DNA of 64,000 nt from positions 1,240,001 through 1,304,000 of the forward strand of contig NZ_LR215048.1 in the NCBI RefSeq assembly GCF_900660745.1, given 5' to 3'. The position numbers and the translations under genes are program-made. The notes under the pieces are model-generated. The model worked only from the letters and a program-made list of their open reading frames with translations, had not been told where the DNA came from and ran no database searches. Source of the stretch: Haploplasma axanthum. GTDB lineage: Bacteria; Bacillota_I; Bacilli_A; Acholeplasmatales; Acholeplasmataceae. Shown here one piece after another: positions 17,398 to 53,826 of this stretch (the first letter of the stretch is position 1; every line of letters begins with the position of its first letter).

Positions 17398-17427
17398 AGC
17401 ATCAAAAAAAGATTCTTTTTTCTCAAC

Positions 17428-17504
17428 TATCCCTCCGCTGGTATAACCCAGATCAGGTTCTTCGGGTCGACTATTGTCCTCTCAGCCTATTGGCTCCCCG
17501 TAGT
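17428..17504 (-). promoter_or_regulatory. TPP riboswitch (THI element)
   Basis: The minus strand contains the conserved THI blocks in order: ACGGGGAGC, GGCTGAGAGG, GACCCG, GAACCTGATCTGGGTTA and CCAGCGGAGGGA. These match the thiamine pyrophosphate aptamer core. With the downstream terminator it should repress thiT when thiamine pyrophosphate is plentiful. Confidence 0.97.
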
Positions 17505-17514
17505 GATCATAATT

Positions 17515-35999: not shown

Positions 36000-38900
36000 T
36001 TATACGTAAAGTGCAATAAACAGTTTATCAAATGCATATGAAATGTTTCTAACACCTGAACTTGTTTGTTCTGTATTATAACCTGTAGTACCAGATGAGC
36101 CTGTTGATCCATATGAACCCATTGATCCTGAAGATCCATTATTACCATCAGCACCATTGCTTCCAGCGTCACCACCAGATCCGCCATATCCACCACTATT
36201 ACCTGAGCCTCCTGAACCACCAGCGCCCCCTACTCCAAATACATAAAGAGCATTTGTTGCAGCACTTCCATTTCCACCGCGGCCTCCAGAGCCACCGTTA
36301 CCACCATTTCCGCCATCTCCTGGATCACCAACTCCATTCCAGATATTAGTACTAGTATCACTAGCACCAGTTCCACCATTACCTCCAGAGCCTCCTTGAC
36401 CACCGTTACCACCGGCTCCTCCAGTAAATCTATAGTTACTAATTGTACTTACTTTTATCGATTCTTTTCCAACAACTCTAATAGCTAAACCACCTTCACC
36501 GCCGGCTCCTCCAGTTCCGCCATTTCCTCCTCTTGCTCCATTATCACCTTTTTTCGGTTTAAGCCAACTACCATTTGGATTTTGTACACCATTTGATCCA
36601 TATTGTCCATCTCCACCGCGGCCACCATTACCACCATTACCTCCAACAACAGTAATCCATGATTTATTATCATATTCACTAAAAGTAACTTTTGTAGCAT
36701 ATATTCCAGTTCCACCGGCCGATCCTGCCCCACCATACTTGCCAGTTATACCATTAGAATTTCCTATCGCCTGATTTTCAGTCCTATAATAACTAAGTCC
36801 ATTACCACCTAATCCACCAACTATCTTATTATGATTCTTATATATAATATACAGTTCAAAATTTGAACTTGCATCTATAGCATTAAATCCTCTTCCATTT
36901 ATATTCTGTTTTGGTCTAAAGTCCATTGAATCAAATCCCATTATCAATGCTGTACTTCTTGATGCTACTTCAATTGACATATTAGTCATTTCTCTATTAT
37001 CGCCAATAAAGGTTACTGACTTAACAGTAGCAGCAATTTTATACAAATATATACTTGTTCTTGATGCATTTTGTAAATCAATAATTACATATTCATCACC
37101 TATTGCAATAGTACCAGATAGATTTCTACTAATTCTTTCCCCTAACCATTTGGCTTCTATTCTTATATCTTTATAAATACCGAATGTTGTTTTAAATTCT
37201 TTATCGTTATATCTCCAATAATCAAAAATGTATCCAAAACGTCTTACCTCTGATATTTGATTGGTTGTAATTGGATTTTCAACAGTAAATGTATATCTGT
37301 TTCCACCTACAAATTCACCTTGATTAGTAACATATTCGATAGTATACTCAATTATTTCATAACGTGCATATAAGTATTCAACTTCATTAGTTCTATACCA
37401 TACAACTTCTCCTGATGCATTAATTACTTGATTACCATTATTCTCACTATCATACCATCCAATAAATTCATATCCATCTTTTCTTGGAACATCTAATTTT
37501 AAAACAGAACCATACGTTATTTCAATTTCAGAATTATCTTGATCATTAAATATATTTAAAGTATATTTTGATTCTTCATATTTTGGATAGAGTTTAATAT
37601 CTTCATAGATATCTAAATAACTATTTAAATGATATATTTTTCCATCTTCATCAAACCAATATAGAAAGTCCATACCTTTTATTTTTGGCGCTTCAATTGC
37701 TTGATCAAATGAGGATCCATATTTTTCAGTTCTACTTCCTAGTTTATTACCATTTTCATCAAAGAAGTCTATTATTATTGGTTTAACTTTTATTTGATTC
37801 TTTACTTCACTATAATAAATACTATTAATATAATAGTTATAATTACCTTCACTAACAAATAGTTCAACATCACTTGAACTTATAGTTCCATCTAATATTG
37901 CAGGTCGTGTTGATTTAAAGAGAATTGATTCTAAATTCAAACATTTTGTAAATGCATCTTTACCTATATTCTCAAGTGTTGTTGGTAAGATAATATTTTT
38001 TATCAAATTACTATTAAAACTATTTCCTGATATCTTTTTAATTCCTTCTGGAATAACTACATCAGTTTCTTCCCCGTTATATTGTATTAAAACCATTCCT
38101 AATGTAATAAAATCACTATTTTGGTTTTCTAACCATGGCGTATTTGAAAATGCATTGTCATCAGTATTTTTTAAATTTTGACCACCATTAATAACAGTTA
38201 ATGTACTATTAGAAAATGTATTAAGACCAACATGTTCAACATTATTCAAATCAATTTTTTGAATTATCTGATTATTCTCAAAAATATACGGTGACAAAAT
38301 TTTCACTTTTGATGGAACAATAAACTCAGTTACATTAGGATTAGCATAGATTGCTATTTGAGTATTTATATTAGAAGTATCCTTATCAATAAGAAAATTA
38401 TTTTCCCATGAATAATATCTATTGTTAGGTATATTGAAATTAGAAATGCCACTATGTAAAAAGGCACTTTCTCCTATATGGTGTAGACCGTTTGGAATAT
38501 CAAAACTAGTTAAATTAGGCATATATGAAAATGCACCTTTATCAATTTCAAGTAATCCAGAATTATTCTCAAATGTAATACTAGTTATATTTTCACTATT
38601 ATAAAAAGCATTTTTTCCTATACTAATTACAGTCTTTGGTATTACTACTTTAGTTAAATTCACTTGTCCATAAGCATTATTTGCAAATGCATAATCACCA
38701 ATAGCAACAACCTTCTTACCATTTATGTATGTAGGTATTACTAATGTATCTGAAATTGGTTTGCCTATGTATGAGCCAATTCCAATTTCATTATTACCAA
38801 CTTCATAAGTTTCATAGTCATTATTCAACTTTATTCCCATTGAAATATCTGAAAGAATATAAGTTCCTAATTCTTTATCTCTAGCTTCCAAGTTATGAGC

Positions 38901-40277
38901 AACAGCAGGCAGTGTCATCGATGTATTATTAAACTCACTATTAGAAAGCATAAAAGTCTTAGTAACTCTTTTAAACCCTAAATATTGCTCACCTGTACCT
39001 AAGTATAATCCTTCATATCCTAGCTGTGAACCTAAATCAACTAATCCATCATTATACCAAGATAAAAATGGTGGATGATAATCAAAATTAATCTCATTAG
39101 CTAATATTTGAACTACATCATCAAATACCACATCAGTTAAATCAAAAACTTTTGCAAGTTCTGAATATATTCCTATAGCTGTTTTTATTGCAGTTAGGAC
39201 TCCAAAAGGATTTTTTAATACATTAAGATTTAAACTAACAATTGCTGTATATATTCCAGCCATTAAAACAGTCTTATCAATATTAACTTTACCGTTAGTT
39301 TTATCACTTATTAGTTCTTGTAAATACTCTAGACTATGCTCTGTTGTTAAAGCTCCTGCAATCTGTAAAAGTGTTGCTTTCCCAGCAAGTGCCATAACAT
39401 TTATATGTGAGTATCTTGTTTCATAGTTCGAATTCCATCTATCCATATATTTCCCATATACACTTTTAGATGTTATATCTTCTGATGCTTCTTTGCTACC
39501 ACTAAAATTGAAATTGAAAAAAAATCTATCTAATGATGCAGATGTTGAGCCAGTATATGGTGTTCCCAAACTATACATTGAATGAACTAAATCTGGATGA
39601 TCAAGTGCATATTGCATATTTGTTATTCCACCTCTTGAGTGTCCTATTAAATTTATTTTTGGAAGTAATCCATTATTTAATACACGAATATCATATACTA
39701 ATTGACTTATTGCATAGTTAAATTCATCATATACAGCATCGTTTCTTCCAGCAGTAGCAGTTTCTGAAGCCTCAAAAAGTATTATACTATGTTTTGATAT
39801 ATCAGTAATGTTTCTTACAATCTTACCAGAATAATTAGTATGAGTATGACTAGCTCGTAACGAATCATAAAGTTCATCAGTTATATCTCTAATTTCCATT
39901 TGTCCATCAATTTTAACCCAATAGATATTAGAGTCAGTAATTTTAGCCATTCTAGTTATAATTGAATCTTTTGAATATGAGAATAAACTATTTTCGTTAT
40001 TTGACCAATGCGATGCACTGCCTTGAAGTCCATGTGTAAAGACTGTCAGTAAAGGTTCATTATCATCAACTACTATATTAGTTTTACTATTAAAATCATA
40101 TCTATCTTCGTTTGGTTGATAACTATCTTTGTATGTATATGTATTTGTTTCATTATATAATTCTTTATCTCCAATATTAAATCTTTTCATTTCTAACGCA
40201 TTAACACTTCTAGTTACATTTACTAAAAAAAACATTAAAATAAAACACGCTATTAATCCACTTATTATTTTTTTCAT
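36000..40277 (-). CDS. Giant secreted lipase / leucine-rich / InlB / Gly-rich surface protein
   Basis: The 1425-residue protein has a signal peptide (cleavage after about residue 27, VNA). An alpha/beta-hydrolase domain (about 70-470) follows with GHSRGG at 212-217 (Ser214) and candidate Asp410 (YNDGLVD) and His461 (AVAHNLE). BspA-type leucine-rich repeats (about 500-800, IGDYAFANN, IGKNAFYNS, IGESAFLHS) and about three InlB/Listeria-Bacteroides repeats (about 835-1045, GYEFIGWYDSE) come next. A Gly-rich region of GGN/GGS/GGT triplets (about 1150-1400) and a short C-terminal NISYAFDKLFIALYV end it. It has no LPxTG. It probably hydrolyses an ester such as a lipid and binds surfaces. AGGAGAT precedes the ATG, 2 bp after the lipoprotein cluster. 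Confidence 0.88.
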   Translation of the reverse strand: MKKIISGLIACFILMFFLVNVTRSVNALEMKRFNIGDKELYNETNTYTYKDSYQPNEDRYDFNSKTNIVVDDNEPLLTVFTHGLQGSASHWSNNENSLFSYSKDSIITRMAKITDSNIYWVKIDGQMEIRDITDELYDSLRASHTHTNYSGKIVRNITDISKHSIILFEASETATAGRNDAVYDEFNYAISQLVYDIRVLNNGLLPKINLIGHSRGGITNMQYALDHPDLVHSMYSLGTPYTGSTSASLDRFFFNFNFSGSKEASEDITSKSVYGKYMDRWNSNYETRYSHINVMALAGKATLLQIAGALTTEHSLEYLQELISDKTNGKVNIDKTVLMAGIYTAIVSLNLNVLKNPFGVLTAIKTAIGIYSELAKVFDLTDVVFDDVVQILANEINFDYHPPFLSWYNDGLVDLGSQLGYEGLYLGTGEQYLGFKRVTKTFMLSNSEFNNTSMTLPAVAHNLEARDKELGTYILSDISMGIKLNNDYETYEVGNNEIGIGSYIGKPISDTLVIPTYINGKKVVAIGDYAFANNAYGQVNLTKVVIPKTVISIGKNAFYNSENITSITFENNSGLLEIDKGAFSYMPNLTSFDIPNGLHHIGESAFLHSGISNFNIPNNRYYSWENNFLIDKDTSNINTQIAIYANPNVTEFIVPSKVKILSPYIFENNQIIQKIDLNNVEHVGLNTFSNSTLTVINGGQNLKNTDDNAFSNTPWLENQNSDFITLGMVLIQYNGEETDVVIPEGIKKISGNSFNSNLIKNIILPTTLENIGKDAFTKCLNLESILFKSTRPAILDGTISSSDVELFVSEGNYNYYINSIYYSEVKNQIKVKPIIIDFFDENGNKLGSRTEKYGSSFDQAIEAPKIKGMDFLYWFDEDGKIYHLNSYLDIYEDIKLYPKYEESKYTLNIFNDQDNSEIEITYGSVLKLDVPRKDGYEFIGWYDSENNGNQVINASGEVVWYRTNEVEYLYARYEIIEYTIEYVTNQGEFVGGNRYTFTVENPITTNQISEVRRFGYIFDYWRYNDKEFKTTFGIYKDIRIEAKWLGERISRNLSGTIAIGDEYVIIDLQNASRTSIYLYKIAATVKSVTFIGDNREMTNMSIEVASRSTALIMGFDSMDFRPKQNINGRGFNAIDASSNFELYIIYKNHNKIVGGLGGNGLSYYRTENQAIGNSNGITGKYGGAGSAGGTGIYATKVTFSEYDNKSWITVVGGNGGNGGRGGDGQYGSNGVQNPNGSWLKPKKGDNGARGGNGGTGGAGGEGGLAIRVVGKESIKVSTISNYRFTGGAGGNGGQGGSGGNGGTGASDTSTNIWNGVGDPGDGGNGGNGGSGGRGGNGSAATNALYVFGVGGAGGSGGSGNSGGYGGSGGDAGSNGADGNNGSSGSMGSYGSTGSSGTTGYNTEQTSSGVRNISYAFDKLFIALYV

Positions 40278-40279
40278 TA

Positions 40280-41035
40280 CTATTTATCTCCTATTCTTTC
40301 CCACTTAGCATATATTTTAGTTTCTATAAACTGATACACTCCTTCTTCATCATATTGCTTGCTTGGTATAATATCATTTTCAAAATCCCATTTATTTATT
40401 CCTTCTAACTCTTTATACCATCCCATAAAGTTATATCCTTCTTTATATGGATCTGGTGGTATTACATTTACTTTTGTTCCATCCGCATCATCTACAAAGA
40501 ATAAGTCATATTCTTCATTTCCTATATAATATGTAATATTTGCTGGTATGTAATTATATTTTTTATATACGTCAATATTTTGAATCTCTTTTAAAAAATT
40601 ATAATTAACAAAAAGTTTACTATATTTTAATGTGTAAATTTGTGCATAAAAACTTATCATTGGCGATATAGAACTAAGGTATACATTCACTTCTTGTTCT
40701 GCAGTATGGTTATATTTGATTGAAGTGCTTAAATTTATTGTTGATGGAAAATAAATGTTTTTTGCATTATCGATTTCAATTGGTTTATTACCACTTGCTA
40801 ATCTAGTCCCAATAAACTTAGCATGAAAACCATCAAGTATTGTAGGAAATATCAATGTTTCTTTTTTCTTTCCTTCTTCACTTAACCCTACTATTGCTAA
40901 ATTAACATCTGGATTTGTTACACCAAGTTTCGTATAAAGGAAATCTCCAGACTCTCTTGGATAATATCTACCCTTACAACTTATCAATGCTACAGATATA
41001 AATAATATTATTATTGCTAAAATTATTTTTTTCAT
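40280..41035 (-). CDS. InlB-repeat lipoprotein, copy A
   Basis: This 251-residue lipoprotein has a signal peptide with lipobox LISC (Cys near residue 20), so it is lipidated and cleaved by LspA. A central domain of about 150 residues, not recognised, is followed by an InlB-type repeat near the C-terminus (GYNFMGWYKELEG, ending KIYAKWE). The middle (about residues 100-155) is the most diverged of the three copies. The ATG at 41035 follows GGAGGTGA; the upstream in-frame start at 41050 has no site. It overlaps copy B by 4 bp. Confidence 0.9.
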   Translation of the reverse strand: MKKIILAIIILFISVALISCKGRYYPRESGDFLYTKLGVTNPDVNLAIVGLSEEGKKKETLIFPTILDGFHAKFIGTRLASGNKPIEIDNAKNIYFPSTINLSTSIKYNHTAEQEVNVYLSSISPMISFYAQIYTLKYSKLFVNYNFLKEIQNIDVYKKYNYIPANITYYIGNEEYDLFFVDDADGTKVNVIPPDPYKEGYNFMGWYKELEGINKWDFENDIIPSKQYDEEGVYQFIETKIYAKWERIGDK

Positions 41036-41784
41036 TGTTTCACCTCCCACTTAGCATATATTTTAGTTTCTATAAACTGATACTCTCCTTCTTCATCATA
41101 TTGCTTGCTTGGTATAATATCATTCTCAAAATCCCATTTATTTATTCCTTCTATCTCTTTATACCATCCTATAAAGTTATATCCTTCTTTATATGGATCT
41201 GGTGGTATTACATTCACCTTTGTTCCATCTGTATCATCTACAAAGAATAAATCATCTTCCTCATTATTGCCTATATAATATGCAATATTAGCTGGTATGT
41301 AGTTATATCTATTATCATATCCAAGTGCAATTTCTTCCATTAAATACTCGTACTTAACAAATATTTTACTGTTTTTTATTTGTTCTTTATATGGATACAT
41401 AGCTGGATCTGGAAATCTATATCCAAAATATATGTTAAGATTTTGTTCTTCTGTATGTTGGTATTTAATTGAACTTCTTAAGATTATAGTCGATGGAAAA
41501 TAAACACTTTTTGCATTACTAATTTCTATCGGTTTATTACCACTTGCAAATCTAGTTCCAATAAACTTAGCATGAAAACCATCAAGTATTGTAGGAAATA
41601 TCAAAGTTTCTTTTTTCTTTCCTTCTTCACTTAACCCTACTATTGCTAAATTTACATCAGGATTTACAACACCAAGTTTTGTATATAAGAAATCTCCAGA
41701 CTCTCTCGGATAATATCTACCCTTACAACTTATCAGAGTCATTGATATAAATACTAGTATTATTGCTAAAATTATTTTTTTCAT
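41032..41784 (-). CDS. InlB-repeat lipoprotein, copy B
   Basis: This 250-residue paralogue of copies A and C has the same signal peptide (lipobox LISC), central domain and C-terminal InlB-type repeat (GYNFIGWYKEIEG, ending KIYAKWE). It is closest to copy C through the IKYQHTEEQ segment, then differs in a variable stretch of about 50 residues (around 105-155). The ATG at 41784 follows GGTGGTGA. It overlaps copy C by 4 bp (ATGA). Confidence 0.9.
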   Translation of the reverse strand: MKKIILAIILVFISMTLISCKGRYYPRESGDFLYTKLGVVNPDVNLAIVGLSEEGKKKETLIFPTILDGFHAKFIGTRFASGNKPIEISNAKSVYFPSTIILRSSIKYQHTEEQNLNIYFGYRFPDPAMYPYKEQIKNSKIFVKYEYLMEEIALGYDNRYNYIPANIAYYIGNNEEDDLFFVDDTDGTKVNVIPPDPYKEGYNFIGWYKEIEGINKWDFENDIIPSKQYDEEGEYQFIETKIYAKWEVKQ

Positions 41785-42530
41785 TGTTTCACCACCCACT
41801 TAGCATATATTTTAGTTTCTATAAACTGATACTCTCCTTCTTCATCATATTGCTTGCTTGGTATAATATCATTCTCAAAATCCCATTTATTTATTCCTTC
41901 TATCTCTTTATACCATCCCATAAAGTTATATCCTTCTTTATATGGATCTGGTGGTATTACATTTACTTTTGTTCCATCCGCATCATCTACAAAGAATAAA
42001 TCTCTTTCTTCATTTCCAATATAATATGCAATATTAGCTGGTATATAGTTATACCACGCATCATGTCCTATTTTTTCTTCTTCAATCAAGTATTCATAGT
42101 TGATAAATATTTTACTGTTTTTTAAATACTCCTTTATTGGATACAAATTTGTATCAGGAAATCTTGATCCAATATATACATTCACTTCTTGTTCTTCTGT
42201 ATGTTGGTATTTAATTGAACTTCTTAAGATTATAGTCGATGGAAAATAAACACTTTTTGCATTACTAATTTCTATTGGTTTACTACCACTAGCAAATATA
42301 GTTCCAATTTTAGTAACATAAAAACCATCAAGTATAGTAGGAAATATTAGTGTTTCTTTTTTCTTTCCTTCTTCACTTAATCCAATTATCGCTATATTTA
42401 CATCTGGATTTGCAACTCCAATTTTTGAATAAAGAAAATCTCCAGACTCATAAGGATAGTGTTTACCACTACAACTTATTAACGTTACTGATATAAATAA
42501 TATTATTATTGCTAAAACTATTTTTTTCAT
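41781..42530 (-). CDS. InlB-repeat lipoprotein, copy C
   Basis: This 249-residue first gene of the cluster has a lipobox LISC signal peptide and the same domain plan as copies A and B. Its processed N-terminus reads CSGKHYPYESGDFLY, against CKGRYYPRESGDFLY in the others. A GGGGGAT site lies before the ATG, which is 34 bp downstream of the -10 element at 42564-42569. It begins an operon of C, B, A and the giant surface protein. Confidence 0.9.
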   Translation of the reverse strand: MKKIVLAIIILFISVTLISCSGKHYPYESGDFLYSKIGVANPDVNIAIIGLSEEGKKKETLIFPTILDGFYVTKIGTIFASGSKPIEISNAKSVYFPSTIILRSSIKYQHTEEQEVNVYIGSRFPDTNLYPIKEYLKNSKIFINYEYLIEEEKIGHDAWYNYIPANIAYYIGNEERDLFFVDDADGTKVNVIPPDPYKEGYNFMGWYKEIEGINKWDFENDIIPSKQYDEEGEYQFIETKIYAKWVVKQ

Positions 42531-42563: not shown

Positions 42564-42592
42564 AGTATATCATTATTTTATTTTATTTTCAA
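42564..42592 (-). promoter_or_regulatory. Promoter of the lipoprotein / giant-protein operon
   Basis: TTGAAA at 42592-42587, a 17-bp spacer and TATACT at 42569-42564. No other promoter or terminator is visible before 36 kb, so a transcript of about 6.5 kb is likely. Confidence 0.75.
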
Positions 42593-42644: not shown

Positions 42645-42674
42645 ACAAAAAAGCTGTTTGTAAAACAGCCTTTA
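42645..42674 (-). terminator. Terminator of lrgAB
   Basis: GGCTGTTTT-ac-AAAACAGCT-like hairpin (GCTGTTT/AAACAGC) followed by T7 on the minus strand, 20 bp after the lrgB stop. Confidence 0.85.
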
Positions 42675-53484: not shown

Positions 53485-53826
53485 TGGTGGAGATGAGGGG
53501 AGTCGAACCCCTGTGCAAGACACTTTCAAATATACTTTCTACATGTTTAGTTCATTTATAATTTCATATCATTAACTAAATAAACAAAAGTTAATAATAC
53601 TATCCTTTTTAGTTTCGTCTAATATAAAGGAGTTTATTAGATATAACTTACTTCTTTGGGCGCCAATAAACCGTAAGTGAGCTTATTTTTGCCAGCTGAA
53701 CCTTATCTTAGGCAGCTAATTGTAAATTTTGGTTTCCGGTTATTAATTAACCTCGGCTTTTTTACTTGAGCAACCAAGACATGCTTATACATCATACGAT
53801 GCCCTGACGAATCCATTAACATCCCC
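53485..53826 (-). ncRNA. ssrA: Transfer-messenger RNA, tag GNQNLQLAA
   Basis: The 342-nt tmRNA on the minus strand starts GGGGATG and ends CATCTCCACCA with an encoded CCA. The arms form the 7-bp acceptor stem; the T-arm contains GGTTCGACTCC. Near the 5' end, GGATTCGTCAGGGCATC is the conserved tmRNA block. The resume codon GGA (53737-53735) opens a tag GNQNLQLAA with a TAA at 53710-53708, preceded by AATTAATAACC as in Bacillus. With the tRNA-borne Ala the added peptide is AGNQNLQLAA, ending in the LAA degron. Confidence 0.95.

What the first reader, a model, noticed from the sequence alone, without database searches (positions are those of the whole stretch)
36000..40277. Giant surface protein joining lipase, leucine-rich, InlB-type and polyglycine modules
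Seen: signal peptide, GHSRGG nucleophile elbow with downstream Asp/His candidates, BspA-type repeats, InlB-type repeats and a 250-residue GGX-rich domain. Known: LRR_5 and InlB-type repeats are common in adhesins; Gly-rich GGX sequences can form polyproline-II bundles, as in snow flea antifreeze protein and some phage tail tips. Inference: the protein may tether an esterase to host or lipid surfaces, which would be a new architecture for a nutrient-scavenging or host-interaction system.
Basis: partly seen in the sequence, partly recalled or inferred. Interest (0 to 1): 0.7.

Follow-up and report, generated by a model that had tools for sequence, protein, structure and literature searches.

The report
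Modular surface lipase with lipoprotein partners
This gene encodes a large secreted fat-cutting enzyme whose head is carried on a repeat-built stalk ending in a glycine-rich tip like those of some virus tail fibres, and it belongs to a scattered, apparently undescribed gut-bacterial family whose genes almost always sit next to genes for small membrane-anchored partner proteins.

Summary
ORF 36000-40277(-), 1425 aa, encodes signal peptide - lipase-fold head - LRR_5 solenoid - InlB-type repeats - beta-helix - glycine-rich polyproline-II bundle. The triad is Ser214-Asp410-His461, invariant in 22/22 aligned heads. Predicted structures support the head (Z 16-20 to lipases, esterases and a phospholipase) and the tip (snow flea antifreeze protein, 1.3 A over 81 residues; phage gp38, same beta-helix plus polyglycine anatomy). 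It is not a one-off: 28 named relatives in Bacilli/Clostridia, mostly MAGs, at least six with a glycine-rich end.

A small lipoprotein gene lies directly upstream in 18 of 23 relatives with upstream DNA, against 5/146 control genes. It tracks the stalk rather than the lipase head, and also occurs near a subtilase-LRR_5 gene. Heads and stalks have different histories, i.e. were exchanged.

Best explanation: a secreted lipase/phospholipase presented on an adhesive stalk, probably held or matured by the lipoprotein. Rival: the lipoproteins are immunity proteins, as TilA is for TslA. New variant of a known kind; catalysis, binding and partner role untested.

The parts
36000..40277 (-). Modular secreted lipase-fold protein, 1425 aa
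   Evidence: Open ORF; Pfam Abhydrolase_1, LRR_5, Flg_new
40197..40277 (-). Signal peptide, residues 1-27 (VNA|LE)
   Evidence: Sequence inspection only; SPI-type, Cys11 not conserved in homologues
38838..40190 (-). Alpha/beta-hydrolase (lipase-fold) head, residues about 30-480, with a low-confidence helical insert about 310-405 (cap/lid candidate)
   Evidence: 3ds8 Z 20.2; BlEst2 Z 18.7; PlaB Z 18.1; family I lipases Z 16-17
39636..39638 (-). Ser214 codon, nucleophile elbow GHSRGG
   Evidence: Invariant 22/22; between strand 183-188 and helix 190-201 of the model
39048..39050 (-). Asp410 codon, catalytic acid (YNDGLV)
   Evidence: Invariant 22/22; follows a strand
38895..38897 (-). His461 codon, catalytic base (AHNLE)
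   Evidence: Invariant 22/22; follows a strand
37788..38837 (-). BspA-type LRR_5 solenoid, residues about 481-830
   Evidence: Pfam LRR_5 E=2e-36; 4oju Z 19.2, rmsd 1.9/129; PcpA 4cp6
37140..37787 (-). InlB-type (Flg_new/List_Bact_rpt) repeat stalk, residues 831-1046, about three modules
   Evidence: Pfam 913-952; first module matches InlB B-repeat 2y5p Z 9.3
36813..37139 (-). Beta-helix segment, residues about 1047-1155
   Evidence: Model m0f7078d3f920
36108..36812 (-). Gly-rich polyproline-II (PGII) bundle, residues about 1156-1390, with two conserved loops NPNGSWLKP and GASDTSxNxxxGVGxPG
   Evidence: (7jjv Z 14.2; 2pne Z 10.2; gp38 9v85 Z 8.9, 6f45 Z 7.9)
36003..36107 (-). C-terminal tail, residues 1391-1425, low confidence; no LPXTG or transmembrane helix seen
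   Evidence: pLDDT under 50 in residues 564-596 of the model
40280..41035 (-). Small lipoprotein 3 (LRR-like N-half + Flg_new); ends 2 nt before the lipase start
41032..41784 (-). Small lipoprotein 2, ATGA overlap with its neighbours
41781..42530 (-). Small lipoprotein 1, first gene of the operon; lipobox Cys20 invariant in the 15-member family
42564..42592 (-). Promoter-like site TTGAAA-17-TATACT with extended -10, 34 nt upstream of lipoprotein 1
   Evidence: Consensus scan; no excess of such sites over shuffles
42649..42673 (-). Intrinsic-terminator-like hairpin separating the lrgB gene from the operon

Best explanation
The protein is exported by a signal peptide and works as an extracellular serine lipase-fold hydrolase (lipase, phospholipase A or ester hydrolase; triad Ser214-Asp410-His461). 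The head is displayed on an LRR_5 and InlB-type stalk that ends in a beta-helix plus polyglycine-II tip, anatomically like the phage gp38 receptor-binding tip. The tip most likely binds a surface (host cell, food particle or another microbe) and holds the enzyme there so that fatty acids or other lipids are released close to the cell. The protein lacks a visible anchor of its own, and the tandem lipoproteins encoded with it are its membrane-side partner: they most likely hold or assemble the stalk at the outer face of the membrane, since they accompany the stalk rather than the lipase head. Shown by computation: fold, triad conservation, domain order, operon, conserved gene pairing, head/stalk exchange. 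Inferred: catalysis, substrate, what the tip binds, and the role of the lipoproteins.
For: Head: Pfam Abhydrolase_1 in 22/22 relatives; triad invariant; model pLDDT 86, pTM 0.82, canonical order of Ser, Asp and His after strands; Z 16-20 to lipases, DUF915, BlEst2, PlaB phospholipase, PPT2. Stalk: LRR_5 and InlB folds. Tip: springtail AFP 7jjv Z 14.2 rmsd 2.2/112, snow flea AFP Z 10.2 rmsd 1.3/81, gp38 Z 7.9-8.9; PP01 gp38 is itself beta-helix plus PGII sandwich plus receptor loops (PMC12892980). Lipoprotein pairing: directly upstream in 18 of 23 loci against 5/146 controls. It tracks LRR_5: 17 of 18 LRR_5 lipases (window included) have it directly upstream, L065 has one directly downstream, and 2 of 6 lipases without LRR_5 have it (Fisher p=0.006, relatedness not corrected). 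A type-A lipoprotein lies two genes before a subtilase-LRR_5 gene in L082. Its N-half matches the LRR start of the lipase by profile (95%, E 3e-8).
Against: No biochemical evidence. The tip model rests on a 5-sequence alignment (mean pLDDT 74.9, pTM 0.58) and the five models differ (51.8-74.9). Full-length orphan lipoproteins exist without a lipase or LRR enzyme next door, so the partnership is not obligatory. L075 and L077 have the lipoprotein but no LRR_5 by Pfam. Tandem, lineage-specific lipoprotein duplications (within-locus identity mostly 55-84%, between loci mostly 28-49%) also fit immunity or antigen variation.
Confidence: 0.5

Rival explanations
1. The lipase attacks membranes (phospholipase A-like) and the tandem lipoproteins are membrane-anchored immunity proteins that stop self-damage, as TilA does for the S. 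aureus lipase toxin TslA.
For: Gene layout parallels tslA: a variable number of tandem lipoprotein genes directly upstream of a lipase gene (PMC10730906). Immunity lipoproteins are known for phospholipase effectors (Tle3/Tli3, PMC9860674). A wall-less cell would need protection from its own phospholipase. Lineage-specific duplication, orphan copies, head swapping and PlaB-like fold all fit.
Against: The lipoprotein is absent from four relatives that are lipases without an LRR_5 stalk (L073, L074, L080, L046) and occurs near a subtilase-LRR_5 gene, so it follows the stalk rather than the lipase. Its folds (LRR-like half, Flg_new) are stalk folds, not DUF576. No T7SS signal; ordinary signal peptide.
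Confidence: 0.25
2. The lipoprotein is a dedicated folding helper for the secreted lipase, analogous to the lipase-specific foldase of Burkholderia/Pseudomonas lipases.
For: Adjacent, probably translationally coupled gene; head is close to family I.1/I.2 lipases, whose known members need an adjacent foldase (2es4, 9g8u among the hits).
Against: The lipoprotein's folds are LRR-like plus Flg_new, not a helical foldase; it accompanies stalks and occurs near a subtilase gene; stalkless relatives lack it.
Confidence: 0.1
3. A non-enzymatic or vestigial adhesin/antigen in which the hydrolase fold only serves binding.
For: LRR_5 and InlB domains are typical adhesin parts; no substrate known.
Against: Complete triad conserved in 22/22 heads at 25-55% identity to the window argues for selection on catalysis.
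Confidence: 0.07
4. The Gly-rich end is not a folded domain but low-complexity or disordered sequence, and the fold match is a memorised AlphaFold pattern.
For: Thin alignment, one model clearly better than the rest.
Against: Strict lag-3 Gly periodicity; two non-Gly loops and strand-like segments conserved among distant relatives; per-block pLDDT mostly 84-92 across the bundle.
Confidence: 0.1

Closest known systems
Bacterial family I lipases and relatives (Burkholderia/Pseudomonas lipase 1ys1/1ex9, staphylococcal and I.5 lipases, BlEst2 6wpy, DUF915 3ds8, PlaB 6zth)
   Same: Alpha/beta-hydrolase fold, GHSxGG elbow, NDG-type Asp and His in canonical order
   Different: Only about 10-22% identity, large helical insert, fused to LRR_5/InlB/PGII stalk; no Pfam lipase family covers the whole head
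TslA/TilA lipase toxin and immunity lipoprotein, S. aureus (PMC10730906)
   Same: Lipase gene preceded by a variable number of tandem lipoprotein genes
   Different: TslA is a T7SS substrate with C-terminal helical domain and DUF576 immunity; here a signal-peptide protein with stalk, and LRR/Flg_new lipoproteins
Phage S16/PP01 gp38 adhesin tip (6f45, 9v85; PMC12892980)
   Same: Beta-helix plus polyglycine-II sandwich presenting loops
   Different: No sequence family match (PHROGs none); loops here are conserved, not hypervariable
Snow flea and springtail antifreeze proteins (2pne, 7jjv)
   Same: GGX polyproline-II bundle
   Different: Those are free-standing; ice binding not suggested here
BspA/HupY-type LRR adhesins and InlB
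   Same: LRR_5 and B-repeat modules
   Different: None of the named examples carries a lipase head
Mycobacterial PE_PGRS proteins and LipY (PE-type lipase; partly from memory)
   Same: Surface protein with GGX domain predicted as PPII (PMC13243192); lipase on a surface-targeting scaffold
   Different: PE domain and ESX-5 export; unrelated modules

Membership tests
Alpha/beta-hydrolase fold lipase/esterase | Ser-Asp-His triad in fold order with nucleophile elbow | tested here: met
   Ser214, Asp410, His461 invariant 22/22; strand/helix order in model; Z up to 20.2
Alpha/beta-hydrolase fold lipase/esterase | Hydrolytic activity on esters or lipids | not testable with these tools
   Needs assay
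BspA-type LRR_5 protein | LRR_5 Pfam match above cut-off | tested here: met
   125 bits against cut-off 27.7
InlB-type B-repeat (Flg_new) | Pfam match above cut-off and beta-grasp fold | tested here: met
   39.5 bits against 27; 2y5p Z 9.3
Gly-rich PPII/PGII bundle | GGX repeats packed as PPII helices | tested here: met
   By predicted model only: 7jjv Z 14.2, 2pne rmsd 1.3/81; periodicity
Phage gp38 adhesin family | Sequence family membership | tested here: inconclusive
   No PHROGs match; fold similarity only, Z 7.9-8.9
TslA/TilA toxin-immunity | Tandem lipoprotein genes upstream of the lipase gene | tested here: met
   PMC10730906
TslA/TilA toxin-immunity | Lipoprotein is DUF576 and protein carries the T7SS helical domain | tested here: not met
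   Lipoproteins match Flg_new only (plus LRR_5 in one of 15), no DUF576; ORF has a signal peptide and no such domain in Pfam
TslA/TilA toxin-immunity | Lipoprotein inhibits the lipase | not testable with these tools
   Needs assay
Lipase-foldase (Lif) pairs | Helical foldase encoded next to the lipase | tested here: not met
   Partner is LRR-like plus Flg_new

The most novel reading that the evidence does not exclude
A two-component surface-enzyme system of gut Bacilli, Clostridia and acholeplasmas: a membrane lipoprotein built of stalk folds acts as a docking or maturation partner for LRR_5-stalked secreted enzymes whose heads (lipase, subtilase) are exchangeable by recombination, in place of the cell-wall sorting that wall-less cells cannot use, with a gp38-like polyglycine tip as the target binder.
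Probability: 0.25. Interest if true: 0.75.

Novelty: new variant of a known kind. Interest (0 to 1): 0.5.

Why it matters
Acholeplasmas take up lipids from outside and have no cell wall on which to hang surface proteins (general knowledge). A displayed lipase with a conserved lipoprotein partner would suggest both how lipid is scavenged and how a large exoprotein stays on a bare membrane. It would also put the polyglycine-II adhesive tip, known from a phage receptor-binding protein and from springtail antifreeze proteins, on a bacterial enzyme, and it offers a clear choice (anchor, immunity or foldase) that simple co-expression tests can settle.

Tried and rejected
First genome-contig search with the single protein found nothing; an alignment query found 28. 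No relative in viral contigs, so no sign of phage origin. PHROGs and PADLOC: no match. NCBIfam gave only partial adhesin/hydrolase matches far below cut-offs. Considered and rejected: Cys11 'LIAC' as a lipobox (signal too short, Cys not conserved in homologues); chance ORF or assembly artefact (homologous architecture in independent assemblies); the lipoprotein as strictly lipase-specific (orphans, and a subtilase-LRR_5 gene nearby). Literature searches combining Acholeplasma, LRR and lipase, or BspA and lipase domain, returned no paper; InlB B-repeat with LRR and lipase returned one Erysipelothrix genome report, not read. Exact organism not established: the relative G015 contig is 1,554,229 bp, which I recall as Acholeplasma palmae; the window genome is in the same family.
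Full report
What is there. The ORF at 36000-40277(-) is real and uninterrupted, 1425 aa, single-copy in a 1.88-Mb complete genome. Pfam finds Abhydrolase_1, three LRR_5 stretches and a List_Bact_rpt/Flg_new repeat, all above the curated cut-offs. Ser214 is the serine of GHSRGG.

Head. Twenty-two aligned heads (the others at 25-55% identity to the window) keep Ser214, Asp410 in YNDGLV and His461 in AHNLE without exception. A model of residues 26-830 (25-row alignment, pLDDT 85.9, pTM 0.82) puts Ser between a strand and a helix, Asp after a strand and His after the next strand, the canonical alpha/beta-hydrolase order. The best structural neighbours are DUF915 protein lin2722 (Z 20.2, 3.0 A over 218), BlEst2 (Z 18.7), Legionella phospholipase PlaB (Z 18.1), PPT2 and family I lipases (Z 16-17). 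This fits lipase, phospholipase A or esterase and does not choose among them. A helical insert at about residues 310-405 is of low confidence and may be a cap.

Stalk and tip. LRR_5 matches solved BspA-like structures (4oju Z 19.2; 4cp6). The first InlB-like module matches the InlB B-repeat (Z 9.3). The C-terminal part was modelled from a 5-row alignment (pLDDT 74.9, pTM 0.58): a beta-helix segment, then a polyproline-II bundle. VIA-align gives the nine-helix springtail antifreeze protein (Z 14.2, 2.2 A over 112), snow flea antifreeze protein (Z 10.2, 1.3 A over all 81) and phage gp38 (Z 8.9 and 7.9). The gp38 receptor-binding domain of phage PP01 is described as a beta-helix, a PGII sandwich and receptor loops (PMC12892980), the same order as here. 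Gly periodicity at lag 3 is about ten standard deviations above shuffles. Two loops, NPNGSWLKP-like and GASDTSxNxxxGVGxPG, are conserved among distant relatives, unlike the hypervariable loops of gp38.

Distribution. The head is sparse: 15 of 296 class genomes at E<0.001, six of them (window included) with strong matches of E below 1e-40, and 4 of 295 phylum genomes at E<1e-10. A same-genus genome lacks it. Twenty-eight named relatives come from Bacilli, Clostridia, Anaeroplasma and Acholeplasmatales records, mostly MAGs, several from colon, caecum or rectum by their titles. At least L054, L055, L056 and L058 carry the same order including the Gly-rich end; L062 and L063 end in Gly-rich domains too. 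L055, L056 and L058 continue past it, with Big_2 domains in those scanned. Some relatives are bare heads of 443-467 aa (L073, L080).

Head and stalk are exchanged. The window head is closest to L055 (54%) while its InlB, beta-helix and PPII parts are closest to L054 (50, 42, 58% against 33, 28, 44% for L055). Trees disagree: in the head tree window+L055 are joined with high support, window+L054 is rejected (p-AU 0.005) and L055+L056+L058 is rejected (2e-5); in the C-terminal tree L055+L056+L058 are one clade (100/100) and window+L055 is rejected (0.002). The groups were named after seeing identities, so the p-values are somewhat optimistic.

Operon and partner. Three tandem lipoprotein genes precede the lipase gene on the same strand, joined by ATGA overlaps and a 2-nt gap, with a terminator-like hairpin and a promoter-like site before the first (promoter-like sites are no more frequent than in shuffles, so that site is weak evidence). 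They form a family (15 rows, lipobox Cys invariant, Flg_new in 15/15) whose N-half matches the LRR_5 start of the lipase by profile. Of 23 relatives with at least 600 bp upstream held, 18 have a roughly 200-310-aa lipoprotein-like gene directly upstream, counting a second, unrelated-looking type of about 205-228 aa, L061 and L075 (whose Cys missed the pattern used) and L079 (adjacent to a broken lipase start, read by eye); in L066 the gap is 195 bp; L065 has one directly downstream. The control rate is 5 of 146 genes by the pattern alone. The window (19 of 24 with it) was added for the tests. The lipoprotein accompanies the stalk: 17 of 18 LRR_5-bearing lipases have it upstream, 2 of 6 without LRR_5 do. 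A type-A lipoprotein gene also lies two genes before a subtilase-LRR_5 gene (L082). Copies within a locus are usually more alike than copies between loci, so tandem duplication is recurrent. Orphan copies occur.

Mechanism. Shown by computation: exported-looking protein, complete hydrolase head, stalk, PGII tip (predicted), conserved partner gene, modular exchange. Inferred: the tip binds a surface, the head releases lipids there, and the lipoprotein holds or assembles the stalk on the membrane, because the protein has no visible anchor and the partner tracks stalks. The main rival is immunity: the S. aureus lipase toxin TslA has a variable number of tandem lipoproteins upstream, and TilA neutralises it (PMC10730906). 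The two readings predict different binding sites (stalk or head) and can be separated by one pull-down and inhibition experiment.

Known or new. Every module is known. The combination, its recurrence across Bacilli and Clostridia, and the lipoprotein pairing were not found in the papers searched, a limited library. I rate it a new variant of a known kind.

Noticed in passing
L082:2972-6478: A type-A lipoprotein gene, then a 165-aa lipoprotein-like gene, then a secreted subtilase (Peptidase_S8) with LRR_5: the same partner type near a different enzyme.
   Followed up: partly
L054, L055, L056, L058: Head and stalk/tip of these lipases have conflicting trees, suggesting recombination between modules.
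   Followed up: yes
L060, L069, L061, L072, L079: A second type of small lipoprotein (about 205-228 aa, no clear Pfam match) occupies the same upstream position.
   Followed up: partly
L052:7205-10369(-): A 1054-aa lipoprotein-like protein with InlB-type repeats and its own Gly-rich C-terminal domain, without a lipase head.
   Followed up: no
L046:7745-11524: The same genome that carries L045 has a second, divergent LRR-less lipase (1259 aa) without an upstream lipoprotein gene.
   Followed up: partly
window 17413-17510: TPP riboswitch on the minus strand.
   Followed up: no
window 53485-53826: tmRNA gene with tag GNQNLQLAA.
   Followed up: no
L047:1929-3427: Two transposase-like ORFs directly before the lipoprotein-lipase operon of the same-family relative, a possible route of spread.
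   Followed up: no
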